From: Coriobacteriaceae bacterium
GTDB taxonomy: Bacteria; Actinomycetota; Coriobacteriia; Coriobacteriales; Atopobiaceae
Assembly (NCBI GenBank): GCA_003862195.1
Contig: QOUO01000003.1
Location: 1-35,027, forward strand
Direction: 5' to 3'
DNA: 35,027 bases
The notes under the pieces were generated by a model. The model had not been told where the DNA came from. It worked only from the letters and a program-made list of their open reading frames with translations, and ran no database searches. This document shows positions 1,084 to 34,777 of the stretch, one piece after another; position 1 is the stretch's first letter, and each line of letters opens with the position of its first letter. Made by a program: the position numbers and the translations under genes.

Positions 1084-2244
1084 CTACACCAGATCGCTTG
1101 TGTTGTAGAACAGGGGCAGCGCGAAGACGTCCCAGGAGGAGGTGCGCACCAGCTTGCTGCCGGCGGTGTACACGTCGCGCGAGACCACGCGCGAGCCCTG
1201 CTTCCACACGCTGCTGCCAAACGGGTCCCCCGCGCCCAGCAGCGTGCCGGACTGCTGCATGGTCGTCGTGTACGTGACGTCCCTGCCGGCGTACACGCGG
1301 CCCACGGCGTCCCACGAGGCGCTTACGGCGCGCTTGCCCCAGAGGCTCGTGGGGTCGGTCACCATGCGCACGATGCGCGACGCGCGCGAGAACTCGATCT
1401 TCTTGAGGTAGCTGTCGTACGCCCAGTCCATGAGCGCCGCCGTGTCCGTGAAGCGTCCCTCGTGCGTCTGGCAGCCGAGCACGGCCGAGAAGAGCTGGAC
1501 GCCCCAGCGCTTGGACGATCCCAGGAAGGTGGTGCCGGACGCCACGGCTCCGGTCTTGATGCCGCAGAGGCCCGCGTAGCTGCCCATGAGGTCGTCCGTG
1601 GAGGAGAGCGTCTTGCTGATGCCGCCCACCGTAACCGTGGTGGAGCGCGTGGTGACCGCCCTCGCGATGAACGAGTAGTGCTCGAGCGCGTAGCGACCCA
1701 TGAGCACGAGGTCGTGGGCGCAGGAGTAGTGGCCGTCCTCCTCGAGCCCGTGCGGGTTGACGAAGTGCGTGTTCGTCATCCCGATCTCCTTGGCCTTCTT
1801 GTTCATGAGCTCGACGAACTTGTCCACGCTGCCGGCCACGTTGATGGCGATGTTTTCTGCCGCGTCGTTGGCGGAGTACACGAGCATGGCCATCATGAGC
1901 TCGCGGAACGTGGGCGTGTCGCTCGAGGTGTAGCCTGCGAGCTGCGCGCCGTCCTGGTACGTCTCGTCGGTGATGGTGCACTTCTTGTCCATGTCGATGC
2001 CGGCGTCGAGCGCCACCATGGCCGTCATGATCTTGGTGATGGAGGCGGGCGCCATATGCTTTGTGGCGTTCTTCTTGGCGAGCACGTTGCCGTCCTGGTC
2101 CACGATCTCGTAGCACTGCGCCTCGGTCACCTGTGGCTTGGACTCCGCGGCGCGTGCGGGCACGGCAGAAAGCCCCAGCGACGCGAGCGCGATCGCGAGG
2201 GCGAGAAGAACGGACCCAACGGCCCGCGTCATCAAACGGTGCAT
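1084..2244 (-). CDS. dacA: D-alanyl-D-alanine carboxypeptidase (PBP5/DacA, peptidase S11)
   Basis: Secreted serine-type D,D-carboxypeptidase that trims the terminal D-Ala of peptidoglycan stem peptides. Of 386 residues, the first 33 form a signal peptide (basic start, hydrophobic core, cleavage near ARAA). The penicillin-binding motifs are in order: SITK near 68-71 (nucleophile Ser), SAN near 124-126 and KTG near 230-232. A C-terminal domain of about 100 residues follows, as in other S11 enzymes, but no clear C-terminal amphipathic anchor is visible. ATG 2244 is preceded by AGGGGAG at 8 bases; the longer open frame upstream overlaps the pgsA-like gene and lacks a signal peptide. It lies 13 bases after that gene. 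Confidence 0.93.
   Translation of the reverse strand: MHRLMTRAVGSVLLALAIALASLGLSAVPARAAESKPQVTEAQCYEIVDQDGNVLAKKNATKHMAPASITKIMTAMVALDAGIDMDKKCTITDETYQDGAQLAGYTSSDTPTFRELMMAMLVYSANDAAENIAINVAGSVDKFVELMNKKAKEIGMTNTHFVNPHGLEEDGHYSCAHDLVLMGRYALEHYSFIARAVTTRSTTVTVGGISKTLSSTDDLMGSYAGLCGIKTGAVASGTTFLGSSKRWGVQLFSAVLGCQTHEGRFTDTAALMDWAYDSYLKKIEFSRASRIVRMVTDPTSLWGKRAVSASWDAVGRVYAGRDVTYTTTMQQSGTLLGAGDPFGSSVWKQGSRVVSRDVYTAGSKLVRTSSWDVFALPLFYNTSDLV
2199..2211 (+). repeat. 13-mer GGGCGAGAAGRNC (copy 1)
   Basis: Exact copy, antisense to dacA within the signal-peptide codons (Val-Leu-Leu-Ala read as GTT CTT CTC GCC), which uses GTT and CTT codons where CTC, CTG or GTC would be expected in this G+C-rich genome. 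Confidence 0.8.
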
Positions 2245-2257
2245 GAGCGTCACTCCC

Positions 2258-3106
2258 CTAGTCGGCCTCTGGCGCACCCGGCACGCCGGCATCGGCCTTG
2301 GAACGCGCGTCCTTCTCGCCCGCGTGGGCTGCCTCGGCCACGGCGTCCGCGGCCTCCACGGCGGCGGCGTCGGCCGCCTCGTCCGTGCGGTGGCCCAGCG
2401 CGAGCGCGCGGCGCTTGATGGCAAACCCGCGCTTGGTGTACACGAGCGCGGCCGCAAGCGAGCACAAAAGGCCGGCGTACACGAAGAAGATACCCAGCGG
2501 CGCGCTCTCGCGGCCCAGGCCAGGCAGCCAGGAGACCTCCACCAGGTTGAGCCCGTGCACGCGCGGCAGGCCCAGCAACAGGAAGCTGAAGCCCGTCATG
2601 AGGAAGGCCGTCGCAAACTTGCCCACGTACACCACGTCGACGGGCCTGCGCTGGTACTTCTGCAGGATCATGCTGCCTATGAAGAGGTAGATGTCGCGCC
2701 CGATCACGAAGATGGCCGTCCACACGGGAAGCTCGCCCGTGAGGATGAGCCCCAGCACGCCCGTGAAGAGCAGCACGCGGTCCATCACCGGGTCCATGAT
2801 CTTGCCGAGCCAGCTCACGGTCTGCGTGCGGCGCGCGACCTGTCCGTCCAGGAAGTCCGTCACGGCGGCGATCACGTAAAAGGTAAGCGCCAGGTAACGG
2901 TTGATGTCGTTCACGAACATATAGAGGAAGATGGCCGTCAGGACAAAGCGACAGAGCGTTATCACGTTGGCGATGGTGAAGATCTTGTGCGAGGGGTTGT
3001 TCGATGTTCCGACCGGGGCCGTGGTGCCGTGCTCCTGGGCAAGGGCGGCGTCGCGTCCAACCTGGTTCTTTATGGAAGTCTCAAACTTTTCGCGCTTGGT
3101 GCCCAA
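2258..3106 (-). CDS. pgsA: CDP-alcohol phosphatidyltransferase (PgsA-like)
   Basis: Integral membrane enzyme of the CDP-alcohol phosphatidyltransferase family, most likely CDP-diacylglycerol--glycerol-3-phosphate 3-phosphatidyltransferase of phosphatidylglycerol synthesis. The family signature D-x2-D-G-x2-A-R-x8-G-x3-D-x3-D is intact around residues 85-110 (DFLDGQVARR followed by GKIMDPVMD). About six membrane segments follow an N-terminal soluble stretch of 40 residues. The C-terminal 45 residues are Ala/Glu/Asp-rich, look disordered and carry one copy of the 13-mer repeat. The start is TTG with AGGAGA seven bases upstream. The cardiolipin or phosphatidylinositol branch of the family cannot be excluded from the motif alone. 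First gene of a three-gene minus-strand unit. Confidence 0.88.
   Translation of the reverse strand: MGTKREKFETSIKNQVGRDAALAQEHGTTAPVGTSNNPSHKIFTIANVITLCRFVLTAIFLYMFVNDINRYLALTFYVIAAVTDFLDGQVARRTQTVSWLGKIMDPVMDRVLLFTGVLGLILTGELPVWTAIFVIGRDIYLFIGSMILQKYQRRPVDVVYVGKFATAFLMTGFSFLLLGLPRVHGLNLVEVSWLPGLGRESAPLGIFFVYAGLLCSLAAALVYTKRGFAIKRRALALGHRTDEAADAAAVEAADAVAEAAHAGEKDARSKADAGVPGAPEAD
2309..2321 (-). repeat. 13-mer GGGCGAGAAGRNC (copy 2)
   Basis: Exact copy in the disordered C-terminal tail of the pgsA-like protein, read in frame as Gly-Glu-Lys-Asp. It faces copy 1 across about 100 bases. Confidence 0.8.
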
Positions 3107-3140
3107 GGGGTCGTCTCCTAAGTACGGATTTAACGTTGCT

Positions 3141-3170
3141 ATGGTAACCCATCGGATGCGGCATTCACAA
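3141..3170 (-). promoter_or_regulatory. possible promoter for the pgsA-like operon
   Basis: On the minus strand TTGTGA (3170-3165) and TACCAT (3146-3141) are separated by 18 bases, about 35 bases upstream of the TTG start at 3106. Each hexamer matches the sigma-70 type consensus at four positions. Confidence 0.35.
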
Positions 3171-3172
3171 AC

Positions 3173-3202: not shown

Positions 3203-3248
3203 GCTTGAAGGACGGTGCGTGCGCGGAAGGCGCCCTTAGGAGGTATTG

Positions 3249-4520
3249 ATGCGATACGAGGTTGGCATCGGCAACCGTACGGAGCGGTTCGAGCTCCCGC
3301 AGGAAGACGTAATAGAGGTCATGCACGCGAACCCCGCGAGCTTTGCGGCCACGGGCGAGAAGGTCGTGCGCGACTCGATCGAGCACCCCATCGGGACGGC
3401 GCGCCTGCGCGAGCTGGTGCACGCGGGCCAGAGCGTCTGCGTCATCACGAGTGACGTGACACGGCCACTCCCCACGGCGACGGTGCTCCCGCCCGTGATG
3501 GACGAGCTCCACGCGGCTGGCGTGCGCGATGAGGACGTGCTTCTGGCCATCGCGCTCGGCAGCCACCGCCCGCAGACGGATGACGAGCTCAGGACCATCA
3601 TGGGCCCCTACTACGGGCGCCTGCGCGTGCTGAACGGCGACTCCAAGGGCCTCAAGCACTTTGGCTACACCTCGCACGGGACGCCGGTCGACGTGCTGCA
3701 GGAGGTCGCGGCGGCAGACGTCCGCGTGAGCCTGGGCAACGTTGAGTACCACTACTTTGCGGGCTACTCCGGCGGCGCCAAGGCCATCATGCCCGGCTGC
3801 TCCACCTTCCAAGCGATCCAGGCAAACCACTCGCTCATGGTCGACCCCGCGGCGCACTCCGGCAACATGGAGAGCCCCGTCCGCCTCGACCTTGAGGAGG
3901 CCTGCGGCATGGTGGGCCTCGACTTCATAGTGAACGTGGTCCTTGATGAGGAGAAGAACGTGGTCTACAGTGCCGCGGGCGACTTTGTGGCTGCTCAGCG
4001 CGACGCCTGCCGCAGGCTGGACGCTCTGTACGGCTGCGAGCTGCGCGAGTATGCGGACGTCGTCGTGGTGAGCCAGGGCGGCGCGCCCAAGGACCTCAAC
4101 CTCTACCAGCTGCAGAAGGCGCTCGACAACGCGAAGCACCCCGTGCGCGAGGGTGGCACCATCGTGCTGGTGGGCTCCTGCGCAGAGGGCCTGGGGCAGG
4201 AGACGTTCGCGAGCTGGATGCACGAGGCCTCGTGTCCGCAGGACGTTGTCGACCACCTGCGCCGCGACTTCAGGCTCGGCGGCCACAAGGCGGCGGCCAT
4301 CGCGCAGATCGAGCTGAGGAACGACATCTACCTCGTGTCCGACATACGTCCCGAGGTGGTCCTCGACTGCTTCATGACGCCCTTCTCGTCCGTGCAGGAT
4401 GCCGTGGACGCGGCCATGGACGCGCAGCGCAAGAGATTGGGGCGCGAGCCGCGCATGCTCATCATGCCCCACGGCGGGTCAACGCTCCCCCTCATGCGGG
4501 TCGAGGGCGACGGGCGCTAA
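3249..4520 (+). CDS. larA: LarA-family nickel-dependent racemase (lactate racemase-like)
   Basis: A 423-residue member of the LarA family, whose founder interconverts D- and L-lactate with a covalently bound nickel-pincer (NPN) cofactor. Residues known from Lactobacillus plantarum LarA are conserved with the same spacing: Asp69 and Arg72 in SDVTRP, His106 in SHRP, His168 and cofactor-anchoring Lys178 in the YHYFAGYSGGAK block, and His194. A later GGAPKDLNLYQLQKALD block supplies the second conserved lysine. LarA homologues act on several 2-hydroxyacids, so lactate is only the default guess. The cofactor genes larB, larC and larE are not in this window. ATG 3249 has AGGAGG at 3238-3243, five bases away; an in-frame TTG at 3246 is too close to it. 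Confidence 0.87.
   Translation: MRYEVGIGNRTERFELPQEDVIEVMHANPASFAATGEKVVRDSIEHPIGTARLRELVHAGQSVCVITSDVTRPLPTATVLPPVMDELHAAGVRDEDVLLAIALGSHRPQTDDELRTIMGPYYGRLRVLNGDSKGLKHFGYTSHGTPVDVLQEVAAADVRVSLGNVEYHYFAGYSGGAKAIMPGCSTFQAIQANHSLMVDPAAHSGNMESPVRLDLEEACGMVGLDFIVNVVLDEEKNVVYSAAGDFVAAQRDACRRLDALYGCELREYADVVVVSQGGAPKDLNLYQLQKALDNAKHPVREGGTIVLVGSCAEGLGQETFASWMHEASCPQDVVDHLRRDFRLGGHKAAAIAQIELRNDIYLVSDIRPEVVLDCFMTPFSSVQDAVDAAMDAQRKRLGREPRMLIMPHGGSTLPLMRVEGDGR
3353..3365 (+). repeat. 13-mer GGGCGAGAAGRNC (copy 3)
   Basis: Exact copy in the larA-like gene, read as Gly-Glu-Lys-Val. Confidence 0.8.
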
Positions 4521-4570: not shown

Positions 4571-4580
4571 AAAAATCTTC

Positions 4581-4642: not shown

Positions 4643-4719
<77 letters not shown>

Positions 4720-6210: not shown

Positions 6211-6585
6211 CTAGAGGTTCTTCTCGCCCCAGTCCTTGAGCTCCATGAGAATGGGTACGAGCGTGCGCGCGCGGTCCGTCAGGCTGTACTCCACGCGGAC
6301 GGGCATCTCGGCGTACTGGGTGCGCATGACGAGGCCGTCGGCCTCGAGCTCCTTGAGGGAAGACGCAAGCATCGTGTTGGTGATGCCGTAGACGAGCTTG
6401 CGCAGCTCGCCGTAGCGGAGCTCGTCCGTCTGCGACAGCGCGACGATCAGCAGAATCTTCCACTTGCCTCCCACGGCGTCGAGCACCCTGCGCAGCGCGC
6501 AGCCCGAGCCCGTGACAGAGGGGTCTGCGCTCGACAGGCAGGGCGACATAGTTTCTCCACGTGCGTTTGTGCTGGTAGACGCCAT
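6211..6585 (-). CDS. HxlR-family winged-helix transcriptional regulator
   Basis: A 124-residue winged-helix repressor or activator of the HxlR family. The family consensus is clear: LDAVGGKWKILLI near 34-47, ELRYGELRKLVYGITNTML around 54-73, LKELEADGLV, and RVEYSLT followed by WGEK at the end. Cys29 sits just before the conserved LDAVGGKW helix, where the redox-sensing cysteine of YodB and HypR lies; Cys16 is a second candidate. Together with the divergent thioredoxin genes this suggests a thiol-stress sensor, which is inference. The first ATG is preceded by AAGGA at about ten bases; an ATG at 6549 with GGAGA four bases upstream is a real alternative. Its last codons carry the 13-mer repeat. 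Confidence 0.9.
   Translation of the reverse strand: MASTSTNARGETMSPCLSSADPSVTGSGCALRRVLDAVGGKWKILLIVALSQTDELRYGELRKLVYGITNTMLASSLKELEADGLVMRTQYAEMPVRVEYSLTDRARTLVPILMELKDWGEKNL
6217..6229 (-). repeat. 13-mer GGGCGAGAAGRNC (copy 4)
   Basis: Exact copy in the last codons of the HxlR regulator, read as Gly-Glu-Lys-Asn. Confidence 0.8.
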
Positions 6586-7342: not shown

Positions 7343-8504
7343 TGCGGCGGTCGCATGCCGTGATGAGCGCCGTCATGAGGGCGAGAAGGGCCGCCTCCAC
7401 GACTGGCATCAGCAGCGGTGACACGCGCTCTATGATGGCGCCCATGAGGGGCGGGGCGACCATCGAGCCCACGTAGGCACAGGCCATCTGGAGCCCCATG
7501 AGCGACTGCGCGTTCCGGCTGCCAAAGCGGCTTGGCGTGAGCTGGATCATCTGGGGATAGATGGGCGCACAGCCCAGGCCCAGCAGCGTGAGCCCCGCGC
7601 CCAGGACGACGGTCGAGCGTCCCAGGAGCAGCACAGCGATGCCGAGGGCCATGGTCGCCTCCCCTACGCGCAGGAGCTGCTGGCCGTCGAGCCTGAGCGT
7701 GAGCACGCCGGAGAGCAGCCTCCCAACCGTGATGCCGCCATAGAAGAGCGAGACCAGAAGCGCGGCCGTCTGGGTGGGGACGCCATGCCCCATCACGAGG
7801 AACGTGGACGACCAGAGGCCGCACGTCGACTCGATGGAGCAGTAGCACAAAAACCCGAGCATCGCCTGGATGACGCCTGGGCGCCGCGCGAGCTGCAGCT
7901 TGGAGGGACGTTCTTCTCCCCCGGCTTCCGCGTGGCTTTCGTCTGTGTGTGTGCCGCGGCGCTCGTGCCAGAGGGGCAGGCTCACGAGGATGGCCGCCGT
8001 GAGCGCGACCTGGATGAGCCCCACGACGCGGTAGCCGCCCTGCCAGCCGGCGGGCGTCGCCATCTGCCACGACATGACCATCGGCCCCACCGCGGCGCCG
8101 ATGCCCCAGCAGGAGTGCAGCCAGTTCATGTGGCGTGGCGCAAAGTGCGTGGCCACGTACGCGTTGAGGGAGGCGTCCACGGCTCCCGCGCCCAGGCCGT
8201 ACGGGACGGCCCAGAGGACGAGCTGCCAAAAGGACCCTGACGCGGAGAAGCCGAAGAGCGCGATGGCCGTGAGCCCCACGGAGCACGCGGTGAGGCCGCC
8301 GGCGCCCAGGCGCCTGACCAGCCGGTCCGTCATGAGGCTCGACACGATGGTCCCCAGGCAGATCACGAGTGATATCGTTCCCGCAGCTGACACCGCGGCG
8401 CCCAGGCTCGCGTGCATGGTGGGCCACGCGGAGCCCAGCAGGCCGTCCAGCAGGCCGAGGCTCACGAACGCGAGGTAGATGATAACGAGGAGAAGCGCCG
8501 TCAT
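7296..8504 (-). CDS. MFS transporter
   Basis: A 402-residue major facilitator superfamily permease with about twelve hydrophobic segments and a central hydrophilic loop near 185-205 (RRGTHTDESHAEAGGEERPS). The DRLVRRLGAGGL sequence after the second segment matches the MFS loop 2-3 motif. The substrate is not recognisable; it resembles the broad sugar/drug type without a diagnostic motif. It starts three bases after the acyl-CoA thioesterase stop and is probably co-transcribed with it. The 3' end overlaps the convergent thioredoxin-like gene by 47 bases. The antisense strand of codons for LLAL near the C terminus carries the 13-mer repeat. Confidence 0.85.
   Translation of the reverse strand: MTALLLVIIYLAFVSLGLLDGLLGSAWPTMHASLGAAVSAAGTISLVICLGTIVSSLMTDRLVRRLGAGGLTACSVGLTAIALFGFSASGSFWQLVLWAVPYGLGAGAVDASLNAYVATHFAPRHMNWLHSCWGIGAAVGPMVMSWQMATPAGWQGGYRVVGLIQVALTAAILVSLPLWHERRGTHTDESHAEAGGEERPSKLQLARRPGVIQAMLGFLCYCSIESTCGLWSSTFLVMGHGVPTQTAALLVSLFYGGITVGRLLSGVLTLRLDGQQLLRVGEATMALGIAVLLLGRSTVVLGAGLTLLGLGCAPIYPQMIQLTPSRFGSRNAQSLMGLQMACAYVGSMVAPPLMGAIIERVSPLLMPVVEAALLALMTALITACDRRISQASARRAQEAGRG
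7379..7391 (+). repeat. 13-mer GGGCGAGAAGRNC (copy 5)
   Basis: Exact copy antisense to the MFS gene, where the sense codons read Ala-Leu-Leu-Ala with CTT for Leu. Confidence 0.8.
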
Positions 8505-11113: not shown

Positions 11114-12623
11114 TGCGCTCACCCCCGCGGGAGTCGTCCTTCTCGTCCGAGGCGGTGGCGAGGCCCTGCTTGTCCGGACCCACGACCATGCGAGAGCCGG
11201 GCCCGCTCTTGGTCACGTGCGCGAGGTCGATGCTGGCGACCTCCTCGGATATGATCTCCATGATGCGCGGCGTGCAGAAGCCCGCCTGGCAGCGCCCCAT
11301 GCAGGCGCCCGTGCGGTGCTTGACGCCGTCGAGCGAGCGGGCGCCCGGCACGCGGCGGCAGGCGTCGCGGATCTGCGCCTCGCTCACGCGGCAGCAGCGG
11401 CAGACGATGGTGCCGTAGGCCGGGTCCTCCTGGATGAGCCGCTGCCAGTCCTCGGGGTCGATGTCGCGCAGGTTGGGGATGCCGCGGCGCGTGGGGACAA
11501 AGCCCTCGTTGGGCGAGAGGCCCAGGATGCCGTTGACGATGCGCGCGACCATGCGCCCGATGGCCGGGCTCGCGCTGAGGCCGGGGCTCTCGATGCCGGC
11601 GCAGTCCACGAAGCCGGGGGCGTCCTCGACCTCGCCGATGATGAACTCCTGGCCGGGCTGGTGCGCGCGCAGGCCGCTGAACGAGGTGATGGTCTCCCTG
11701 AAGGGGATGTCGCGCACCGTGAGGGCGGATTTGCGGCGCACCTCGGCCAGGCCGTCTGGCGTGGTCTGGGTGCCGGACTTGTCCGGGATGTCCTCGGCCG
11801 TGGGGCCGACCAGAAGGTTGCCGTGGATCGTGGGCGTCACGAGCACGCCCTTGCCCATCTTGGTGGGGAGCATGAACACCGTGTGGCGTACGTGGTCGCC
11901 GGCCGTGGTGTCAAGCAGCTCGTACTGGCCGCGGCGGGGCGTGATGGATATCCTGCTTGCGCTCACCATGTTGTGGAGCTCGTCGGCGTGCACGCCGGCG
12001 GCGTTCACCACCACGTGCGAGAGGAACGTGCCCTTGGGGGTCGTGACCTCCCACAGGGCCGGCTCCCCATCGCGCTTGCGGCGCCTGGCGCCCGTGACCG
12101 GTGCGTCGAAGCGGAACTCGACGCCGTTTGCGGCGGCGTTCTCCGCCAGGGCGTCCGTCAGCTCGAACGGGTCGCAGATGCCCGCCGTGGGCGCCCAGAG
12201 CGCCGCCACCGCGGCGTCGGATATGTTGGGCTCCATGCGGACGAGCTCTTCTCGCCCAACTATGCGCAGGTCATGCACGCCGTTGGCGTGCCCGCGCTCG
12301 AGCAGCGCCTGCAGCGCGGGCAGGTCGGCCTCGTTGGTGCACACCACGAGCGAGCCGATCTGCCTGAAGCCAAACTCGAGCTCGCGCGAGAGCTCTGGGA
12401 AGAGCGACGTGCCCTCCACGTTGAGCCTCGCCATGAGCGTGCCTGTCTGGGCGTCGAAGCCCGCGTGCACGATCGCCGAGTTCGCCTTGGAGGTGCCGGA
12501 GCACACGTCGTCCTCCGCCTCCAGCACAAGGAAGCGCCCGTCGAGCCGCGAGAACTCGCGGGCTATGGAGCACCCGCTCACGCCCGCGCCCACGACGAGC
12601 GCGTCATACACCGTTTCTGCCAT
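11106..12623 (-). CDS. GlpA-like FAD-dependent dehydrogenase with BFD-type [2Fe-2S] domain
   Basis: A 505-residue flavoprotein of the FAD glycerol-3-phosphate dehydrogenase (GlpA/GlpO) superfamily. It has an N-terminal VVGAGVSGCSIAREF Rossmann motif and a DAO-type substrate domain. Residues from about 410 form a BFD-like iron-sulfur domain with cysteines in CRCC and further on in ACMGRCQAGFC. The substrate could be glycerol-3-phosphate or another 2-hydroxyacid: no glpK or glpF is near, so the usual name is not secure. ATG 12623 follows GGGAGGGAAGG. First gene of the triad with an NAD(P)/FAD oxidoreductase and DUF1667, a set common in anaerobic Firmicutes and Coriobacteriia. Confidence 0.85.
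   Translation of the reverse strand: MAETVYDALVVGAGVSGCSIAREFSRLDGRFLVLEAEDDVCSGTSKANSAIVHAGFDAQTGTLMARLNVEGTSLFPELSRELEFGFRQIGSLVVCTNEADLPALQALLERGHANGVHDLRIVGREELVRMEPNISDAAVAALWAPTAGICDPFELTDALAENAAANGVEFRFDAPVTGARRRKRDGEPALWEVTTPKGTFLSHVVVNAAGVHADELHNMVSASRISITPRRGQYELLDTTAGDHVRHTVFMLPTKMGKGVLVTPTIHGNLLVGPTAEDIPDKSGTQTTPDGLAEVRRKSALTVRDIPFRETITSFSGLRAHQPGQEFIIGEVEDAPGFVDCAGIESPGLSASPAIGRMVARIVNGILGLSPNEGFVPTRRGIPNLRDIDPEDWQRLIQEDPAYGTIVCRCCRVSEAQIRDACRRVPGARSLDGVKHRTGACMGRCQAGFCTPRIMEIISEEVASIDLAHVTKSGPGSRMVVGPDKQGLATASDEKDDSRGGERNA
12245..12257 (-). repeat. 13-mer GGGCGAGAAGRNC (copy 6)
   Basis: Exact copy in the GlpA-like gene in a different frame, read as Gly-Arg-Glu-Glu. Confidence 0.8.
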
Positions 12624-18150: not shown

Positions 18151-18999
18151 CTATGCCTCCACGCTTGCCGCGATGCCACGCAGCAGGCTGATCTCCTTCT
18201 TGTATCCCGCCAGGTCGTTGGGCGTCTCCAGGATCATGGGGAGCGTGCGCGTCCTGGGGTTGGTCACCACGGCGCGAAACGCGTCCAGTCCCAGCGTGCC
18301 CTCGCCGATCTTCTCGTGGCGGTCCTTGTGCGACCCGCAAGGGTTCTTCGAGTCGTTTACGTGCAGCGCCTTGAGGCGGTCGAGCCCGATCACGCGATCG
18401 AACTCGTCCAGCACGCCGTCGAGGTCGCCGGCCACGTCGTAGCCCGCGTCGTTCACGTGGCAGGTGTCGAGGCAGACGCCCATGTACGAGTCGAGCCGCA
18501 CGCCATCGAGGATGCGTGCCAGCTCCTCGAAGCTCCGTCCGACCTCCGTGCCCTTGCCGGCCATGGTCTCGAGCAGCACCGTCGTGTGCTGCCCCTCGAA
18601 GAGCGCCTGGTTGAGCCCCTCGCAGATGAGCTCGATCCCGCGGTCGACCCCCTGCTTCACGTGGCTGCCCGGGTGGAAGTTGTAGTAGTTGCCCGGCAGC
18701 TCCTCCATGCGCCTGAGGTCGTCCGCCATGGCCGTGCGGGCAAACTCGACGGTTCGCTCCGTGGAGGAGCAGAGGTTCATGGTGTAGGGGGCGTGCGCCA
18801 CAAGAGGGCCAAAGTCCTTCTCGCCCATAATGCGCCTGAGCTCCGCCACGTCGTCCGGGTCGAGCGGCTTGGCGTTGCCACCGCGCGGGTTGCGCGTGAA
18901 GAACGCGAAGGTGTTCGCGCCGATCTCCACGGCACGCCGGCCCATGGCGGCGTAGCCGTCCGACGTGGAGAGGTGGCAGCCGATGCAGATGTCCGCCAT
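18151..18999 (-). CDS. nfo: deoxyribonuclease IV (endonuclease IV)
   Basis: A 282-residue AP endonuclease of the zinc-dependent Nfo family, which cuts 5' of abasic sites in base-excision repair. Family metal-site blocks are in order: NFHPG near 113-117, LETMAGKGTEVG near 150-161, VCLDTCHVNDAGYD near 184-197, and HVNDSKNPCGSHKDRHEKIGEG near 224-245. Length matches the family. ATG 18999 is chosen because residues before it are unlike Nfo; the ribosome site is weak (GGGGAC). It starts one base after the coaBC stop. One 13-mer repeat lies in frame as GEKD. Confidence 0.95.
   Translation of the reverse strand: MADICIGCHLSTSDGYAAMGRRAVEIGANTFAFFTRNPRGGNAKPLDPDDVAELRRIMGEKDFGPLVAHAPYTMNLCSSTERTVEFARTAMADDLRRMEELPGNYYNFHPGSHVKQGVDRGIELICEGLNQALFEGQHTTVLLETMAGKGTEVGRSFEELARILDGVRLDSYMGVCLDTCHVNDAGYDVAGDLDGVLDEFDRVIGLDRLKALHVNDSKNPCGSHKDRHEKIGEGTLGLDAFRAVVTNPRTRTLPMILETPNDLAGYKKEISLLRGIAASVEA
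18814..18826 (-). repeat. 13-mer GGGCGAGAAGRNC (copy 7)
   Basis: Exact copy in nfo near residue 59, read as Gly-Glu-Lys-Asp. Confidence 0.8.
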
Positions 19000-20986: not shown

Positions 20987-22168
20987 CTAGCGTCCGCCGG
21001 ACGCCACGATTTCCAGAAGCGCGTCGGCAAAGGCGTCGAGGTCCTTCTCGCCCACGCGCTCGTCGAACGATATCCTGAGCGAGCCCAGAGCGTCCCGGCG
21101 CGCGATGCCCATGGCCGAGAGCACGTGGCTGGGGTCGAGCGAGCCCGAGGAGCATGCCGAGCCGGCGGAGACCTCGAAGCCGCGCGCGTCGAGCTTGAGG
21201 ATGAGCGTCTCGGAGTCGAGGGTCGGCACCATGACCGACACCATGCCCGGAAGCCTGTCCTCCCCCACGCTCGCGCTCACGGTCGGGAGGATCCCCGTGC
21301 CCTCGGCGCAGAGCCTGGCGTACAGCGCGTTGGCCCTGCCCTGGACGAGCGCCCTCAGTCGCGGGAGGTCGTCGCAGCAGTGGCGCACCGCTGCCGCGAA
21401 GGCGAGCGCCGCGCGGACGTCCTGCGTGCCGGGGCGCCTGCCCTGCTCCTGGCCGCCGCCAAAGGTCTGCGGCCTGAAGGGCGTACGCCCGCGGATGAGA
21501 AGGGCGCCGATGCCGACCGGGCCGCCGATCTTGTGCGCGGCGACGCTCACGGCGTCGACGTTGACGCAGTCGAGCGGGATGCGCCCGAAGGCCTGCACGG
21601 CGTCCGTGTGCATGAGGGCGCCGGCGGCGTGCGCCACGGCACCGATCTTCCCCACGGGCTGGACGACGCCCGTCTCGTTGTTGGCGCTCATGACGGACAC
21701 CAGCGCGACGTCGGGACCCATGAGGGACTCGACGGCCTCCGCCGTGACGACGCCGTCGCGGTTGGGGCGGGCGAGGTCGACGTCGAAGCCGCGGTTGCGG
21801 AGCGCCGGCACCACGTCGAGCTCGGAGTCGTGCTCGATGGCGGACACGATGACGCGCGTCCTGGCGCGGTCGCGGTCGCGCGCGCCCTCGGCCAGCCCGT
21901 AGAGGGCGAGGTTGTTGGACTCCGTGCCGCCCGACGTGTACGCCACGTCAGCCGGCCTGAAGCCGCCGCCAACGGCCTTTGCGATCACGCGGCGGGTGGA
22001 CTCGAGCTTGGCAGAGGCCATGCGCCCCAGCGTGTGCAGCGAGTTGGGGTTGGCGCCGGCGATCTGGGACGCCTCGTAGTCTCGCTCGGCGGCGAGCGCC
22101 TCCTCGCACATGGGTGCGGATGCCGCGTAGTCCAGGTACACGAACCTATCGCTCATATTCTCGCGCAT
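20987..22168 (-). CDS. cysteine desulfurase (IscS/NifS family)
   Basis: A 393-residue PLP enzyme that removes sulfur from cysteine for iron-sulfur clusters, thionucleosides and cofactors. The start YLDYAASAP, the PLP lysine at 213 in AAHKIGGP, and the persulfide cysteine at 339 in SAGSACSSGSLDPSHVL identify it. The short active-site loop style fits the NifS/IscS group rather than SufS. No iscU or mnmA is adjacent, so its specific acceptor is unknown. The ATG at 22168 lies four bases after the rpe stop; ATG 22156 is an alternative that matches the usual N terminus. One 13-mer repeat lies in frame near residue 373. Confidence 0.92.
   Translation of the reverse strand: MRENMSDRFVYLDYAASAPMCEEALAAERDYEASQIAGANPNSLHTLGRMASAKLESTRRVIAKAVGGGFRPADVAYTSGGTESNNLALYGLAEGARDRDRARTRVIVSAIEHDSELDVVPALRNRGFDVDLARPNRDGVVTAEAVESLMGPDVALVSVMSANNETGVVQPVGKIGAVAHAAGALMHTDAVQAFGRIPLDCVNVDAVSVAAHKIGGPVGIGALLIRGRTPFRPQTFGGGQEQGRRPGTQDVRAALAFAAAVRHCCDDLPRLRALVQGRANALYARLCAEGTGILPTVSASVGEDRLPGMVSVMVPTLDSETLILKLDARGFEVSAGSACSSGSLDPSHVLSAMGIARRDALGSLRISFDERVGEKDLDAFADALLEIVASGGR
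21041..21053 (-). repeat. 13-mer GGGCGAGAAGRNC (copy 8)
   Basis: Exact copy near the 3' end of the cysteine desulfurase gene, read as Gly-Glu-Lys-Asp. Confidence 0.8.
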
Positions 22169-26018: not shown

Positions 26019-26031
26019 GGGCGAGAAGGGC
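26019..26031 (+). repeat. 13-mer GGGCGAGAAGRNC (copy 9, intergenic)
   Basis: Exact copy in the der-ispH gap, ending one base before the ispH stop codon (26033-26035) on the opposite strand. Here no protein constraint can explain it. Confidence 0.8.
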
Positions 26032-26923: not shown

Positions 26924-28456
26924 CTACTTCTTGTTGGGATGCTCCTGGCGGAGTTCGTCGCGCAGGGCGTACACGCGCTCCATGGCGACCTCCTCCATGC
27001 GCTGGGCCTGCTGCTTCCTGCCCTTGACGCCAAGGTCCGAGAACTCGATGCAGTCTCCGGCCTTGCAGAACACGCGGCCGAAGCGCTTCCAGTGCGTGCC
27101 CCTGGGCGTGATGTCGCGCGCGCCCACGATGGCCATGGGCTGCACGGGGGCCTTGGCCATCTGCGCCATGAGCGAGAAGCCGCCATGAATGGTGACCGGC
27201 TGGTCGTCACTCTTGATGCGGGTGCCCTCCGGGAAGATGAGCACGACCTCGCCGCGTTTGAGCGCGGCCTGCGCGCGACGGACCGCCTTGAGGTCGGCCG
27301 TGCCGCGCTTGATGGGGATGGTTCCCGCGCGCGAGAAGACCCACGACACGAACGTGTTGGTGTAGAACTCGCTCTTGGCGATGGCGCGGACGCGCTTGCC
27401 GTGGTAGTAGAGCGAGCAGATGACGATGACGGGGTCGAGCATCGACGTGTGGTTCATGACCACCACGCGGCCGCGGTCGTCATCCCAGAGCTTGCGGGCA
27501 TCCTCGATCTTCCACGGCCACAGCACCTTGGTGACGAAGGTGACGATGGCCGCAGCAACCGCGTAGAGGGCGCGCGCCGGAAGCGGGAACTCGCGCATGC
27601 CGTGGTCGTAGTAGTCGTCAAACGTGTTGCCGGCAAACGCGCGCATCTTGCCGGGCTTGTTCTTCTCGCCCGTTGCGCCCTTGGGAGCAGGCTTCTTAGC
27701 TGGGGCCGCCTCCTGCGCCTTGGCGGCCGCGGGAGCCTCCGGCTCTGCCGGGACGGGCGCCTGGGACTTTGAGCGGGCCTCGTCCATGAGGTCCACGATC
27801 TTCTGGACCACCTCGTCGGGCGCGAGGCCGGAGTTATCGATCAGGTGCGCGTCCGCGGCGGGCTTCAGCGGGGACTCCTTGCGCGAGGAGTCGAGCTTGT
27901 CGCGGCGCACCAGGTCGCGCAGGATCTGTTGCTCCTCGGCCGCGTCAGCCTTGGCGCTCGCGTCCTGGCCGGCGTCCCCGCCCTCGCGCTGCACCGCGCG
28001 GCGGTGGGCACGGGCGGCGGCGTCCGCCGTCAGGAAGACCTTCACCTCTGCGTTGGGGAAGACGACGGTGCCGATGTCGCGACCCTCTGCCACGACGTCG
28101 CCCGTGTAGCCGAGCTCCCTCTGGCGCTCGACCATGGCGTGCCTCACGCGCGGGTAGGCCGCCACGACGGAGACGTTCCTGTCCACCTCCGGAGTTCGGA
28201 TCTGGTGCGTGACCTCCTGGCCGTCGATGAGCACGGTCTGGCCCTCGGCGGAGCGGCCAAAGTCGATGCGCGCTGCCTCGGCCACCTTGGAGACGGCCTC
28301 CTCGTCGTTCACGTCGATCCCGTCCGCGAGGCACTTGTACGTGACCGAGCGGTACATCGCGCCCGTGTCCAGGAACTTGAGGTTGCACCTCTTGGCAATG
28401 GCGTGAGCGGTCGTGGACTTGCCGGACCCGGCCGGCCCGTCGATGGCGACTATCAT
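26924..28456 (-). CDS. cmk: fusion of cytidylate kinase and 1-acyl-glycerol-3-phosphate acyltransferase
   Basis: A 510-residue two-enzyme protein. Residues 1-228 are cytidylate kinase (CMP/dCMP to the diphosphate), with Walker A GPAGSGKST at 7-15, DTGAMYR at 30-36 and EGRDIGT at 124-130. Residues about 229-270 are an Ala/Pro/Lys-rich linker. Residues about 280-510 are a PlsC-type acyltransferase with NHTSMLD at 335-341 (the His-x4-Asp catalytic motif) and FPEGTR at 408-413. No stop or frame change separates the halves. In many Clostridia cmk and plsC are neighbours before ispH, so this looks like fusion of an ancestral pair. The ATG overlaps the upstream phosphatase stop (ATGA). The linker contains the 13-mer repeat. 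Confidence 0.93.
   Translation of the reverse strand: MIVAIDGPAGSGKSTTAHAIAKRCNLKFLDTGAMYRSVTYKCLADGIDVNDEEAVSKVAEAARIDFGRSAEGQTVLIDGQEVTHQIRTPEVDRNVSVVAAYPRVRHAMVERQRELGYTGDVVAEGRDIGTVVFPNAEVKVFLTADAAARAHRRAVQREGGDAGQDASAKADAAEEQQILRDLVRRDKLDSSRKESPLKPAADAHLIDNSGLAPDEVVQKIVDLMDEARSKSQAPVPAEPEAPAAAKAQEAAPAKKPAPKGATGEKNKPGKMRAFAGNTFDDYYDHGMREFPLPARALYAVAAAIVTFVTKVLWPWKIEDARKLWDDDRGRVVVMNHTSMLDPVIVICSLYYHGKRVRAIAKSEFYTNTFVSWVFSRAGTIPIKRGTADLKAVRRAQAALKRGEVVLIFPEGTRIKSDDQPVTIHGGFSLMAQMAKAPVQPMAIVGARDITPRGTHWKRFGRVFCKAGDCIEFSDLGVKGRKQQAQRMEEVAMERVYALRDELRQEHPNKK
27659..27671 (-). repeat. 13-mer GGGCGAGAAGRNC (copy 10)
   Basis: Exact copy in the low-complexity linker of the cmk-plsC fusion, read as Gly-Glu-Lys-Asn. 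Confidence 0.8.
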
Positions 28457-29130
28457 TTGTCCTCGCTTCCCGAGATGTTCTGGGTGGTGTCGATTCCTAT
28501 GAGACTTGGGTCCTTGGCGCGGCGGGCGACCTCCTCCGGCGCGAGCGCGAGCGCCGCGAGCGAGAAGTGCCCGTCCCCGTACGTGAGGACCTGCGAGCTC
28601 ACGTTGGGGAGCGTCACGTGCCAGAACGTGCTGAGTGGCGTGCCGAACACGGCACCCAGGATGGCGCGGGACATGCCGCCGTGGCTGATGCAGGCCGTGC
28701 GCCCCTCGAGCGGAGCGAGGTCGTCCAGCACGGTACGTGCGCGGGCGAGAAGGTCCTCGAAGCTTTCCGCACCCGGTGCGGCGATGGAATGGCCATCCTG
28801 GTCCAGGGGCCAGGGGAAGTCGTATCCCATGCGGTGCACCTCGTCCATGTGCAGTCCCTGCACGCTGCCGAAGTTGATCTCCGCGAGGTTCTGGTGCACC
28901 TCGCACGGCACGCCGAGCGCGAAGGCGGCCTCCTCCGCGATGGAGCGGCAGCGCGAGAGCGGCGAGCACCAGATGCGGTCCGGCTTCCAGGCCACGACGG
29001 CCTTGATGGCGCGGCGCATCTGCTCCTCTCCCCTGGGCGTGAGGTCGACGTCGATCCTGCCGGAAAGGACGCCGGCCATGTTCTCGCGCGTCTCCGGATG
29101 GCGCATGAGCAAAATCCTGTGGCTGGGCAT
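28453..29130 (-). CDS. histidine phosphatase family protein
   Basis: A 225-residue phosphoglycerate-mutase-like phosphatase. The catalytic histidine is in LMRHPETREN near 8-17; most relatives have Arg-His-Gly, here the third residue is Pro. The second histidine is in SHGGMSRAI near 146-154, and SPLSRC with the AEINFG block complete the family pattern. The substrate is unknown; CobC-like, sugar-phosphate or nucleotide phosphatase roles are all open. ATG 29130 overlaps the rluB stop (TGATG) and has GGGAGG eight bases upstream. It overlaps the cmk-plsC start by four bases at its other end. Confidence 0.86.
   Translation of the reverse strand: MPSHRILLMRHPETRENMAGVLSGRIDVDLTPRGEEQMRRAIKAVVAWKPDRIWCSPLSRCRSIAEEAAFALGVPCEVHQNLAEINFGSVQGLHMDEVHRMGYDFPWPLDQDGHSIAAPGAESFEDLLARARTVLDDLAPLEGRTACISHGGMSRAILGAVFGTPLSTFWHVTLPNVSSQVLTYGDGHFSLAALALAPEEVARRAKDPSLIGIDTTQNISGSEDK
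28743..28755 (+). repeat. 13-mer GGGCGAGAAGRNC (copy 11)
   Basis: Exact copy antisense to the histidine phosphatase gene, where the sense codons read Asp-Leu-Leu-Ala with CTT for Leu. Confidence 0.8.
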
Positions 29131-29957: not shown

Positions 29958-30718
29958 CAGCCGTCCACCTCCTGCGAGCCGTCATCCTGGGCATCAGGCT
30001 GCGGCGATGGGGGCTCGTCCTTCTCGCCCATAGCGTTGACAGCGGGCGCGTCGAGGTCCTCGTCCGCGTAGTCGTCGCCCATGAGCTCCTGCTCCTCGTC
30101 GATGTCGTCCGCGGCCTCCTCGAGCGTGGAGGATATGGCGCGGCCGGACAGGCGCTCGCGGATGAAGCGCTTGGACTCCTCGTCGGGCGCGAAGTCCTCG
30201 AGCGGCGGGAGCTCCTTGAGCGACTTGAGGCCGAAGGTCTCCAGGAAGCGCGGCGTGGTGCCAAAGAGCGTGGCCCTGCTGCGGTCGCGCTCGTGGCCCA
30301 TCTCGCGCACGAGGCCCTTCTCCTTGAGGGATGCGATCACGCCGTCGGAGTTGACGCCGCGCACGGCCTTGACGCCCTCGCGCGTGACCGGCTGGTGGTA
30401 GGCAATCACGGCAAGGGTCTCGAGCGCGGCCTGGGAGAGCTTGCGCGTGTCCCACGAGAGCACGTAGCGTTCGACGACGTCGTGGTAGGCGGGGTGCGTG
30501 AAGAGCCGCCAGCCGCCGGCGACCTCGCGCAGCTGGAAGCCGCGGTTGGCGTCGGAGTACTCCGCCGAGAGCTCCGCCAGGGCGGACGCGGCCTCGCTCG
30601 GCTCCACGCCCAGGATGCTGGAGAGGTCCGTCGCTGGCACGGCGTCGGTCGACACGAGCAGCAGCGCCTCGATCGCTCCCTTGAGCGAGTCGTGGTCAAG
30701 GTGTTCGAGTTCCTGCAT
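29957..30718 (-). CDS. scpB: segregation and condensation protein B
   Basis: A 253-residue kleisin-interacting subunit of the SMC-ScpAB condensin. Two winged-helix domains are visible in about 1-165 (EALLLVSTDAVPATDLSSIL, then LETLAVIAYHQPVTREGV and GTTPRFLETFGL). The last 80 residues are acidic and low-complexity (DDIDEEQELMGDDYADEDL), longer than in many ScpB proteins, and hold one 13-mer repeat. The start overlaps the scpA stop by TGATG. Confidence 0.94.
   Translation of the reverse strand: MQELEHLDHDSLKGAIEALLLVSTDAVPATDLSSILGVEPSEAASALAELSAEYSDANRGFQLREVAGGWRLFTHPAYHDVVERYVLSWDTRKLSQAALETLAVIAYHQPVTREGVKAVRGVNSDGVIASLKEKGLVREMGHERDRSRATLFGTTPRFLETFGLKSLKELPPLEDFAPDEESKRFIRERLSGRAISSTLEEAADDIDEEQELMGDDYADEDLDAPAVNAMGEKDEPPSPQPDAQDDGSQEVDG
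30017..30029 (-). repeat. 13-mer GGGCGAGAAGRNC (copy 12)
   Basis: Exact copy in the disordered tail of scpB, read as Gly-Glu-Lys-Asp. Confidence 0.8.
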
Positions 30719-32199: not shown

Positions 32200-32208
32200 G
32201 CACTTCTC

Positions 32209-32790
32209 CTATCGGTCTCGAAGCTCCCGCGCCTTGCGCGAAAGGAGCCAGTCGACAATAAAGAACGCGACGGCCACCGCCACAAAGTCGCCGCGCAGGA
32301 CGCCGCCAAACGGCGTCTGGTACACGAGCGAGCCAGAAAGCCCGTCGGGGATCCACGATGCGACCGTGCTCGTGATCTCCACAAGGCGTATGCGCAGCGG
32401 GCCGATGTTGAACGCGTTGGCCACCACGAGGGCCGCAAGCGCGATGGCGCACAGGCGGAGCACCACCGCGATGAGCTTGAGCAGCCATGCCGCCCCCGCG
32501 CCGCCGCGACGCACCGGCTCGCGCTGCGCCGCCTGCGCGTTGGGCGAGAAGGGCTGCTGCGCCGGGCTCTCGACGGGTGCCACGTTGGGGCGGTAGGCCT
32601 GCTGCTGCGGTGCGCGGCGCATGGTCTGCGTCACGGGCACGTCGGACGCGGCCTGGGACTGCTGGCGCGCGGGGGGCACGGGCTGGTACTCGGCCGTGTC
32701 ACCGGACACCACGCGGGTCTCCTGCGGGCTCACGACCCTCGTCGCCTCCTCGTCGGCGGCATTCCAGTCCCTGGGGGCGTGCTTAGGCAT
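32209..32790 (-). CDS. hypothetical membrane protein with disordered N terminus
   Basis: A 193-residue protein I do not recognise. The first 95 residues are rich in Gln, Pro and Ala and look disordered. Two hydrophobic segments follow, near 100-125 and 165-185, with a short extracytoplasmic or cytoplasmic loop between them and a basic end ([11 protein letters not shown]). The start overlaps the ABC-F stop by eight bases, so it is coupled to that gene, and it is followed by the M50 protease. One 13-mer repeat lies antisense to codons for PFSPN near residue 80. Confidence 0.7.
32542..32554 (+). repeat. 13-mer GGGCGAGAAGRNC (copy 13)
   Basis: Exact copy antisense to the hypothetical membrane protein gene, in yet another frame (sense Pro-Phe-Ser-Pro). 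Confidence 0.8.
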
Positions 32791-34777
32791 TCAGGCTCTC
32801 CTCGATCTTCTCCGTGAGCTCAAGCCACTCCTCCTCGAGTTGCGGGATCCTCTTGGAGAGGGCGTTGTACTCCTTCATGCACTTGTCAAAGCGCTCGGAG
32901 TCGTTGTAGAGCTCCTCGTCGGCCATCTGCGCCACGAGCTCCTTGTAGCGGTCCTGCGCGTGCTTGAGCTCCGCCTCGATCTGCTTCAGACGCTTCTTCT
33001 CGGCGCGGACGGCCTTGTTGGCGGCGTTTCTGGCCTCGGCCTCGGCGCGGCGCTGCTCCTTGGTCTTGACGTTCCTACCAGTGCCCTGCTGCTGCTTGGC
33101 AGCGGGAGTCGCGGTCGCGGGGACGTTCTTCTCGCCCGCGGCCTCCGTTGGTGACGCCTCGCCCTCGAGCTCCGCGCGCTTGTAGAGGTAGTAGTCGTAG
33201 TCGCCGTCGTACAGCGTGACCTTGTGGTCGCGCACGTCAACCACCTTGTTGGCCACCGCGCGCACCAGGTGCTCGTCGTGGCTGATCAGCACGATCGTGC
33301 CCGGGAAGTTGACGAGTGCCTCCTCCAGCACGTCGACGGAGTCGATGTCCAGGTGGTTGGTCGGCTCGTCCAGGCACAGCAGCGGGTCGGGCGCCACGAG
33401 CATGCGGGCCAGGGCAAGGCGCGCCCGCTCGCCGCCGGAAAGGACGCCGACCTTCTTGTCCACGTCGTCGCCGTGGAAGAGGAAGGCGCCCAGCAGCTTG
33501 CGCTCCTGCGAGGTGGTCCAGCCCGGCGCGGCCTCGTCCATCTCCTGCAGGACGGTATAGGACTCCTTCAGGGTCTCCAGCTGGTGCTGCGCGTAGTACG
33601 AGACGGTCACGTTCTGGCCCAGCTTGACGCTGCCCGCCGTGGGGGCCTCGTGCCCGTTGATGAGCTTCATGAGCGTGGACTTGCCGGCGCCGTTGGGGCC
33701 GACCAGCGCCACGTGGTCGCCGCGGTAGAGCTTGAGGTTGACGTCATCGTACACGTCATTGTCCTCGTAGTGCTTCGCCACACCCTCCAGGCTCACGACC
33801 TCGTCGCCGGTGCGCGGCGGGTCCGGGAACCTGAAGTGCACCTTCTTGGAGGACTCGGGCAGGACCACCAGCTCCTCGCGCACCTTCTCGAGCTTCTTGA
33901 TACGCTCCTGCACCTGCTTGGCCTTGGTCGGCTTGTAGCGGAACCTCTCGATGAAGACCTCCATGTGCTGGATGTCCCGCTCCTGCGCCGCGCGCTTGGC
34001 GCGAAGCTGCTCAAGGTTGTCCTCGCGCTGCTTGAGGTAGCTCGAGTAGTTGCCCGTGTAGGTCATGAGCCGCTTGTTCTCGAGCGCGGCAACGTGGCTC
34101 ACGCACGCGTCCATGAAGGCGCGGTCGTGGCTCACCAGCAGCACGGCGCCGTCGTAGGCACTAAGGAAGCTCTCCAGCCACTTGACGCTCTCGAGGTCCA
34201 GGTGGTTGGTCGGCTCGTCCAGGAGGAGAAGGTCGGGGTGCCTCAGCAGGAGCTTCGACAGGGCTATGCGCATCTGCCAGCCGCCGCTGAACTCCTTGGC
34301 CGGCTTGTCGAAGTCCTCAACGGGGAACCCCAGGCCGCCCAGGATCTGCCTGGCGCGCGCGTCGAGCTCGTAGCCGCCCAGCCGCTCGTAGCGGTCCTGC
34401 GCGGCGCCGTACTTCTCCAGCAGGGCGTACTGCTCGTCGCCCTCCGGCATCACGGAGATCTGGTGCTCCATGTCCTTTATCTTGCGCTCCAGGGTCTTGA
34501 TCTCCTTGGCGGAGTCAATCACCTCTTCAAGCGCGCTCTTCTCGCCCGCGAGCTTCGTCTCCTGCTCGAGGTAACCCACGGTCGTGTCCTTGGCAAAGCT
34601 CACGGTGCCCTCGTCGGGCTCCTCCTGCCCCATCAGGATCTTGAGGAGCGTGGTCTTGCCCGCGCCGTTGGGCCCCACAAGGCCCCAGCGCTCCCCCGCG
34701 TTGAGCTGCAACGTTGCGGCCGTGTACAGGACACGGCCGCCAAATGACTTCGTTATCTTGTCCGCTAGTGCTATCAA
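32783..34777 (-). CDS. ABC-F family ATPase (YdiF/YheS-like)
   Basis: A 664-residue soluble duplicated ATPase of the ABC-F class, expected to act on ribosomes. Domain 1 has [17 protein letters not shown] and LDEPTNHLD; domain 2 has [17 protein letters not shown] and LDEPTNHLD. Both catalytic glutamates are present. The inter-domain linker near 240-300 is helical and basic. Two low-complexity/coiled-coil parts make up the last 120 residues. The start is TTG at 34777, where the protein reads as [13 protein letters not shown]; the frame further upstream runs into promoter sequence. AGGA lies about eleven bases before the start. It heads the operon that continues to scpA and scpB. Two 13-mer repeats are in frame. 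Confidence 0.9.
33125..33137 (-). repeat. 13-mer GGGCGAGAAGRNC (copy 14)
   Basis: Exact copy in the low-complexity linker of the second ABC-F protein, read as Gly-Glu-Lys-Asn. Confidence 0.8.
34535..34547 (-). repeat. 13-mer GGGCGAGAAGRNC (copy 15)
   Basis: Exact copy early in the second ABC-F gene, read as Gly-Glu-Lys-Ser. Confidence 0.8.

What the first reader, a model, noticed from the sequence alone, without database searches (positions are those of the whole stretch)
1483..34547. Highly over-represented 13-mer GGGCGAGAAGRNC scattered on both strands
By reading both strands I find 15 exact copies: plus strand at 2199, 3353, 7379, 26019, 28743, 32542; minus strand at 2309, 6217, 12245, 18814, 21041, 27659, 30017, 33125, 34535. 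The 9-mer core GGGCGAGAA occurs twice more (440-448 and 17187-17195). All 15 copies of GGGCGAGAAG are followed by a purine, any base, then C. Five further sites differ at one base only and still end in RNC: 1483 (+), 7910 (-), 14387 (+), 16111 (+), 26885 (-). At about 66-68% G+C, base composition alone predicts a few hundredths of a copy in both strands of 35 kb (my hand estimate). Copies lie in several reading frames, antisense to genes and in one intergenic gap, so protein coding cannot be the sole cause. Average spacing is about 2.3 kb. That resembles DNA-uptake sequences of Neisseriaceae and Pasteurellaceae or Chi-like sites; no such signal is known to me in Coriobacteriia.
Basis: partly seen in the sequence, partly recalled or inferred. 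Interest (0 to 1): 0.92.

Follow-up and report, generated by a model that had tools for sequence, protein, structure and literature searches.

The report
Genome-wide 13-base signal, likely DNA-uptake tag
Many bacteria of the Olsenella/Atopobium family carry hundreds of copies of one short DNA word on both strands of their chromosomes, apparently a 'self' tag like those that guide DNA uptake in Neisseria and Haemophilus, which would be the first such tag known in Gram-positive bacteria.

Summary
GGGCGAGAAGRNC occurs 15 times in the window (0.04 expected) and 664 times in the 2.42 Mb genome (336/328 by strand; reversed control 7). In a 413-kb sample, neither synonymous shuffling (93 coding copies against 26) nor a noncoding Markov model (33 against 0.03) explains it. 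Same-genus genomes carry 444 and 457. In 122 family genomes the core GGCGAGAAGRNC reaches 100 copies and 8 times the control in 54, in 12 of 31 genera; the letter before the core differs by lineage. Outside the family, 144 of 147 class members have at most 61; the other three are one genus. Sites show no replication-strand bias (57:55), turn over by substitution, and the 13-mer is missing from a 41-kb prophage (7.6 expected). ComEC (121 of 122) and a pilus-type ATPase (122 of 122) are near universal. Best explanation: a DNA-uptake-sequence-like self tag, the third known and first in Gram-positives, probably read by a Tad/Flp plus ComEA/ComEC system. Uptake is untested, no receptor is known, and patchy loss of the motif is not explained by loss of the machinery.

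The parts
2199..2211 (+). exact motif copy, noncoding
2309..2321 (-). exact motif copy, sense in ORF 2258-3106
3353..3365 (+). exact motif copy, sense in lactate-racemase-like gene 3249-4520
6217..6229 (-). exact motif copy, sense, at the end of ORF 6211-6549
7379..7391 (+). exact motif copy, antisense in MFS gene 7296-8504
12245..12257 (-). exact motif copy, sense phase 0 in FAD oxidoreductase gene 11106-12611; differs in the G001 orthologue
18814..18826 (-). exact motif copy, sense in gene 18151-18999 (xylose-isomerase-like barrel)
21041..21053 (-). exact motif copy, sense in aminotransferase gene 20987-22168
26019..26031 (+). exact motif copy, noncoding; kept in G002
27659..27671 (-). exact motif copy, sense in cytidylate kinase/acyltransferase gene 26924-28456
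28743..28755 (+). exact motif copy, antisense in ORF 28453-29106; differs in G001 and G002
30017..30029 (-). exact motif copy, sense in ORF 29957-30718; differs in G001 and G002
32542..32554 (+). exact motif copy, antisense in ORF 32209-32790; kept in G001 and G002
33125..33137 (-). exact motif copy, sense in gene 32783-34678 (two ABC ATPase domains)
34535..34547 (-). exact motif copy, sense in gene 32783-34678 (two ABC ATPase domains)

Best explanation
The motif (consensus cGGGCGAGAAG-R-A-C-G with a loose C-rich tail; inner core GGCGAGAAGNNC) is a DNA-uptake-sequence-like self-recognition tag of Atopobiaceae. SHOWN: genome-wide excess on both strands; excess in noncoding, sense and antisense DNA of the samples; a shared core with a lineage-dependent first letter; turnover by point substitution; absence of the 13-mer from one prophage; DNA-import (comEA/comEC) and tad/Flp pilus genes in the genome. 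INFERRED: a surface part of the Tad/Flp pilus or an associated protein binds the motif on extracellular double-stranded DNA, ComEA and ComEC import one strand, and recombination replaces resident alleles. Biased uptake of tagged fragments makes copies accumulate wherever the sequence tolerates them, and the differing first letters favour DNA from close kin.
For: Genome-wide: 664 copies against 7 for the reversed control. Words of the motif rank first among 9-, 10- and 11-mers (with 15 or more copies) against a fifth-order Markov model in a 378-kb sample. Nulls in 413 kb of G000: coding 93 against 26.1 (maximum 36 of 40 shuffles), antisense 21 against 0.5, noncoding 33 against 0.03; the excess recurs in G001, G002 and G005. 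Strand: 57 leading, 55 lagging in 29 stretches of closed relative G001 (P 0.92). Core counts: 54 of 122 family genomes with at least 100 copies and 8 times the control; 28 of 29 genomes of genus g4 have 526-1119. First letter of the core-matching sites, whole genomes: G in 72-85% in the three g1 genomes and 70% in G081; T in 48-62% in the five g15 genomes, 64% in G012, 52% in G148. g15 samples are 52% G+C yet carry the core. Orthologous sites are unchanged in 11 of 37 (G001) and 12 of 40 (G002) against about 9% for nearby control windows and 19-22% sample-wide. Prophage in G001: 0 copies of the 13-mer in 41,144 bp against 28 in 150,772 shared bp, 7.6 expected, P 0.0005; core 3 copies, 0.73 against 3.34 per 10 kb. 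Machinery: comEA and comEC, tad cluster, ComEC in 121 of 122, PF00437 ATPase in 122 of 122. Precedent: tad genes are required for transformation of Micrococcus luteus (PMC4322843, passages).
Against: No uptake or transformation data were found for these organisms (capped listings). The motif is patchy while the machinery is not: low-motif G105 (154 core copies), G033 (73) and G010 (48) have comEA, comEC, tadA, tadB, tadC, flp and a tadG-like gene without in-frame stops, as do high-motif G001, G005 and G081. No receptor was found; pilin-like tad genes occur in high and low genomes alike. Site conservation is weak: in the Gly-Glu-Lys frame GGCGAGAAG was kept in 8 of 16 and 8 of 21 motif copies, but in 6 of 8 and 8 of 10 copies outside the motif (small numbers), and flanks of sites are divergent (identity 0.72 against 0.81-0.83). 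Not all unshared DNA is poor in sites: in C1 of G000 the 16.2 kb not aligned to G001/G002 hold 16 of 44 copies, though only one such piece exceeds 2 kb. The mobile-DNA test rests on one prophage, of lower G+C (0.60). Samples of G081 (38 kb, tad and com contigs) held only 1 core copy, and the motif was not among top words in 160 kb of G007. Terminator inverted pairs, common in Neisseria (recalled), were not seen; spacing is near random.
Confidence: 0.6

Rival explanations
1. Binding site of an intracellular chromosome-organising or segregation protein, spread over the chromosome.
For: Genome-wide scatter on both strands, in coding and noncoding DNA, near-random spacing.
Against: A non-palindromic 12-13 base word with lineage-dependent first letter, fast turnover of single sites, patchy presence within genera and absence of the 13-mer from a prophage are not what I expect of a housekeeping site (inference). 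Counts per 20-kb stretch of G001 run from 0 to 7 without an obvious gradient, which I did not test formally.
Confidence: 0.15
2. Chi-like recombination hotspot recognised by a RecBCD/AddAB-type enzyme.
For: Over-represented oriented word dispersed over the chromosome.
Against: No leading-strand excess, 57 to 55 (leading strand taken from local GC skew, which is crude). Chi sites are 5-8 bases (recalled). The AddB model is below its cut-off in 16 of 16 genomes, but it also passes in only 1 of 14 control genomes, and RecBCD and AdnAB were not searched. Presence is patchy between close relatives.
Confidence: 0.08
3. FtsK-orienting polar sequence (KOPS-like).
For: A G-rich oriented word, as KOPS are (recalled).
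Against: KOPS are strongly co-oriented with replication (recalled); observed 57 to 55.
Confidence: 0.01
4. By-product of codon and amino-acid usage (Gly-Glu-Lys-Asp/Asn frame).
For: 69 of 126 copies in the G000 sample are sense phase 2, and synonymous shuffling alone yields about 26 coding copies.
Against: Noncoding 33 against 0.03 expected and antisense 21 against 0.5; the core persists in g15 samples at 52% G+C.
Confidence: 0.02
5. Another process: a word spread by mutation or repair bias without a recognition role, or a self-marker read by a defence system that spares tagged DNA.
For: Patchy distribution, site turnover and absence of the 13-mer from a prophage would also fit a self-marker.
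Against: No candidate enzyme or locus was searched for. Copies arise mainly by substitutions in aligned orthologues, so an inserted element is unlikely.
Confidence: 0.14

Closest known systems
DNA uptake sequence (DUS) of Neisseriaceae
   Same: Short non-palindromic word in very many copies; variants (dialects) that keep an inner core (PMC3630211 abstract; PMC12616744 passages).
   Different: Unrelated sequence; host is an actinobacterium; the only PF00437 ATPase found in the window's genome sits in a tad cluster; no terminator inverted pairs seen; uptake and receptor not shown.
Uptake signal sequence (USS) of Pasteurellaceae
   Same: Hundreds or more copies with one orientation favoured in the reading frame and a bias to gene ends (PMC2346458 abstract); here sense copies exceed antisense 72 to 21 and the outer gene deciles hold 56 of 204. 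An extended flank, here C-rich at positions 17-22, recalls the USS flank (recalled).
   Different: Unrelated sequence, different phylum; the USS flank is AT-rich (recalled).
Chi sites and KOPS
   Same: Genome-wide short oriented words.
   Different: Those are shorter and co-oriented with replication (recalled); this one is strand-symmetric in the sample.

Membership tests
DNA uptake sequence (DUS/USS) | Short word far over-represented in the species' own genome | tested here: met
   664 against 7; nulls
DNA uptake sequence (DUS/USS) | No strong replication-strand preference (recalled criterion) | tested here: met
   57:55 in 112 sites of 29 stretches of G001
DNA uptake sequence (DUS/USS) | Dialects with a conserved inner core across related lineages | tested here: met
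   Core GGCGAGAAGNNC; first letter G in g1 and G081, T commonest in g15, G012 and G148, mixed in g4, g30 and G013
DNA uptake sequence (DUS/USS) | Host encodes a DNA-import system | tested here: met
   comEA, comEC and tad cluster; function not shown
DNA uptake sequence (DUS/USS) | Scarce in recently acquired mobile DNA | tested here: inconclusive
   One prophage: 13-mer 0 against 7.6 expected, core 3 copies; other unaligned pieces are not poor in sites
DNA uptake sequence (DUS/USS) | Presence of the word tracks competence genes | tested here: inconclusive
   ComEC and PF00437 ATPase near universal while the word is patchy: machinery may be needed but does not predict the word
DNA uptake sequence (DUS/USS) | Specific surface receptor such as ComP | tested here: inconclusive
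   tad pilin-like genes in high and low genomes alike; none singled out
DNA uptake sequence (DUS/USS) | The word raises DNA uptake or transformation | not testable with these tools
   needs experiment
Chi site | Leading-strand excess | tested here: not met
   57:55
Chi site | Cognate RecBCD/AddAB enzyme | tested here: inconclusive
   AddB model TIGR02773 below cut-off in 16 of 16 genomes; RecBCD and AdnAB not searched
KOPS | Polarity along the replichore | tested here: not met
Codon-usage artefact | Copies explained by synonymous shuffling and confined to one frame | tested here: not met

The most novel reading that the evidence does not exclude
A third, independently evolved DNA-uptake-sequence system, the first in Gram-positive (actinobacterial) bacteria, read by a Tad/Flp-type competence pilus, with lineage dialects at the first base that restrict gene exchange among Atopobiaceae.
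Probability: 0.5. Interest if true: 0.93.

Novelty: new variant of a known kind. Interest (0 to 1): 0.86.

Why it matters
[quoted passage not shown] A third case in a distant Gram-positive lineage would show that self-tagging of DNA evolves repeatedly and is not tied to the outer membrane. It would imply natural transformation in a family where my searches found no report of it (capped listings), suggest motif-tagged DNA for genetic work, and offer pairs of relatives with and without the motif for finding the receptor.

Tried and rejected
Codon/amino-acid origin: rejected by synonymous shuffling and by noncoding and antisense copies. Chi and KOPS: strand symmetry. RNA-level signal: 21 of 126 copies in the G000 sample are antisense and 33 noncoding. 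Terminator inverted pairs: not seen among the 29 noncoding or edge sites listed. Inserted 13-mer: aligned orthologues mostly show substitutions; some sites lie in gapped stretches. Loss of ComEC or Tad genes as cause of low-motif genomes: not supported in G105, G033 and G010 (in one search my gene calls had shown only a short tadC match in G033, which one search shows to be a calling artefact). In G148 the tadG-like match breaks into two frames near a contig end, not pursued. A different motif in low genomes: scans of 100 kb of G105 and 40 kb each of G033 and G010 gave no comparable word; small samples could miss one. Gene contexts for the two g15 genomes are discarded, because my high-GC gene model fails there. 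In the 46-kb sample of G013 the first letter looked T-dominated, but whole-genome counts give T 130, G 108 of 395, so G013 is mixed. Viral contig searches returned only the same prophage and one fragment. A literature search for the 10-mer returned 64 papers, of which the 15 listed look unrelated by title and abstract start.
Full report
OBSERVATION. In the whole genome (2,422,853 bases, 155 contigs) there are 664 copies, 336 and 328 by strand, against 7 for the pattern read backwards. In a 378-kb sample (20 stretches of contigs C1-C6 plus the window) words of the motif rank first among 9-, 10- and 11-mers against a fifth-order Markov model. Of 136 copies of GGGCGAGAAG there, 134 have C at position 13; position 11 is rarely C (5) and position 12 prefers A (70). 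In noncoding and antisense copies pooled from G000, G001 and G002 (n=123) position 0 is C in 76, position 14 G in 68, and positions 17-22, chosen after seeing the data, are C-rich (52% against 38% upstream, P 5e-10).

NULLS. Genes were called with a home-made codon-based finder, so contexts are approximate. In 413 kb of G000, 126 copies divide into 69 sense phase 2 (Gly-Glu-Lys frame), 3 sense phase 0, 21 antisense in all three phases and 33 noncoding. Forty synonymous shuffles give a mean of 26.1 coding copies (maximum 36), 0.5 of them antisense; a first-order Markov model of the noncoding DNA gives 0.03. Coding against shuffled and noncoding against expected: G001 92 against 24.1 and 31 against 0.08; G002 35 against 11.0 and 9 against 0.02; G005 (any first base) 53 against 16.1 and 25 against 0.08. 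The G001 noncoding share may be inflated by poor calls in a prophage. In G000 noncoding DNA holds 26% of copies in 13% of the sequence.

STRAND AND SPACING. Relative G001 is one contig of 2,353,093 bases. In 29 stretches of 20 kb, 112 copies split 57 leading and 55 lagging by the sign of local GC skew. Spacing is near random: CV 0.86 in the G000 sample, 1.16 over 170 intervals with the prophage included. Noncoding copies showed no inverted-pair or terminator arrangement. Sites in genes are slightly enriched in the outer deciles (56 of 204 against 41 expected, P 0.006).

TURNOVER. Aligned with the fetched parts of G001 (81% identity) and G002 (83%), the pattern is kept in 9 of 37 and 10 of 40 sites; the 11 defined bases are unchanged in 11 of 37 and 12 of 40, against about 9% for nearby control windows and 19-22% sample-wide. 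Flanks of sites are more divergent than average (identity 0.72). Against the reading: in the Gly-Glu-Lys frame the 9-mer was kept less often inside the motif (8 of 16, 8 of 21) than outside it (6 of 8, 8 of 10). So sites turn over between species of one genus, mostly by substitution, and sit where constraint is weak.

DISTRIBUTION AND FIRST LETTER. Same-genus G001 and G002 have 444 and 457 copies. The core GGCGAGAAGRNC was counted in 122 family genomes: 56 have at least 100 copies, 54 of these also at least 8 times the reversed control, in 12 of 31 genera by my reading. Genus g4 has 526-1119 in 28 of 29 genomes; G105 has 154. Patchiness: G081 289, G033 73; G148 128, the other twelve g9 genomes 18-80; G012 122, G060 and G061 25 and 39. 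Outside the family 144 of 147 class members have 0-61; the other three (203, 168, 166) are the three g66 genomes. Whole-genome shares of the first letter: G 85, 72 and 73% in g1 and 70% in G081; T 48-62% in the five g15 genomes, 64% in G012, 52% in G148; mixed in G013 (T 130, G 108 of 395) and in g4 (G 31% in G005, 17% in G107, 58% in G126). In a 22-kb contig stretch of Tractidigestivibacter montrealensis 4 of 4 core copies have T; most of the 41 coriobacterial contigs fetched with ComEC had 0 or 1 copy. Samples of g15 are 52% G+C, of G107 (g4) 70%, so base composition is not the cause. In G005 some dispersed repeats outrank the motif, and in 160 kb of G007 and the small tad/com samples of G081 and G148 it is not among the top words.

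HOST. Named ComEC relatives are Olsenella, Tractidigestivibacter, Thermophilibacter, Parafannyhessea and other Atopobiaceae or Coriobacteriales. I infer the family Atopobiaceae; no call names the window's genus.

MOBILE DNA. G001 carries 41,144 bases (709671-750814) without match in the compared G002 and G000 sequence, with terminase, portal, head, scaffold and tail genes. It has 0 copies of the 13-mer; the 150,772 matched bases have 28, so 7.6 were expected (P 0.0005). The core has 3 copies there (0.73 against 3.34 per 10 kb). Its G+C is 0.60. Against: in C1 of G000 the 16.2 kb without match hold 16 of 44 copies and in G002 5.1 kb hold 2 of 38; these are nearly all pieces under 2 kb, likely noncoding or divergent DNA (inference).

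MACHINERY. comEA and comEC are adjacent at C3:11632-14731 (comEA named by my reading). ComEC is found in 121 of 122 family genomes; the miss is 88% complete. The only PF00437 match of G000 lies in a tad cluster (CpaE-, TadA-, TadB-, TadC-, TadG-like and Flp pilin genes, names by my reading); PF00437 is found in 122 of 122, but I looked at neighbours in only seven other genomes. Eight com and tad proteins have matches without in-frame stops in high-motif G001, G005, G081 and low-motif G105, G033, G010; in G148 the tadG-like match is broken near a contig end. So these genes do not explain the patchiness. In Micrococcus luteus tad genes are required for transformation, and tad with comEA/comEC is frequent in actinobacteria (PMC4322843, passages).

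READING. DUS/USS fit best among known kinds: word length, numbers, both strands, a favoured reading frame (PMC2346458 abstract), variants with a constant core (PMC3630211 abstract; PMC12616744 passages), scarcity in a prophage, import genes. The steps from motif to receptor to uptake are inference. 'DNA uptake sequence' with 'Coriobacteri' returned 0 papers; related searches returned 1, 16, 356 and 18, of which 1, 12, 12 and 10 were listed, none about such a motif in this class by title and abstract start. The library is open-access only.

Noticed in passing
L209:13939 onward (G232 contig C1): 44 copies of a repeat word, about 61 bases apart in those printed, that looks like a CRISPR array.
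   Followed up: no
L080, L082, L083, L084 (G005): Dispersed short clusters of repeats containing GGTTGCGGAC, often two to three copies 61 bases apart, at several places.
   Followed up: partly
L225-L228 (G107): Dispersed elements built on GGTACGTACA with about 21-base spacing, direct and inverted copies in groups.
   Followed up: no
L078, L079, L080, L084, L191 (G005): Related word GGCGAGAAACGCC occurs 8 times in ten sampled stretches; it may be a second variant of the motif.
   Followed up: partly
G232, G269, G286 (genus g66, another family): Core motif is enriched (203, 168, 166 copies) in the three sampled genomes of one genus outside the family; parallel gain or transfer is possible.
   Followed up: partly
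G105: The one low-motif genome (154 copies) among 29 of genus g4, with com and tad genes free of in-frame stops; a natural loss case.
   Followed up: partly
window 4643-4719 (+) and 34914-34989 (-): tRNA-Pro(GGG) and tRNA-Met(CAT); DNA like the latter stretch occurs in more than one copy in relatives.
   Followed up: no
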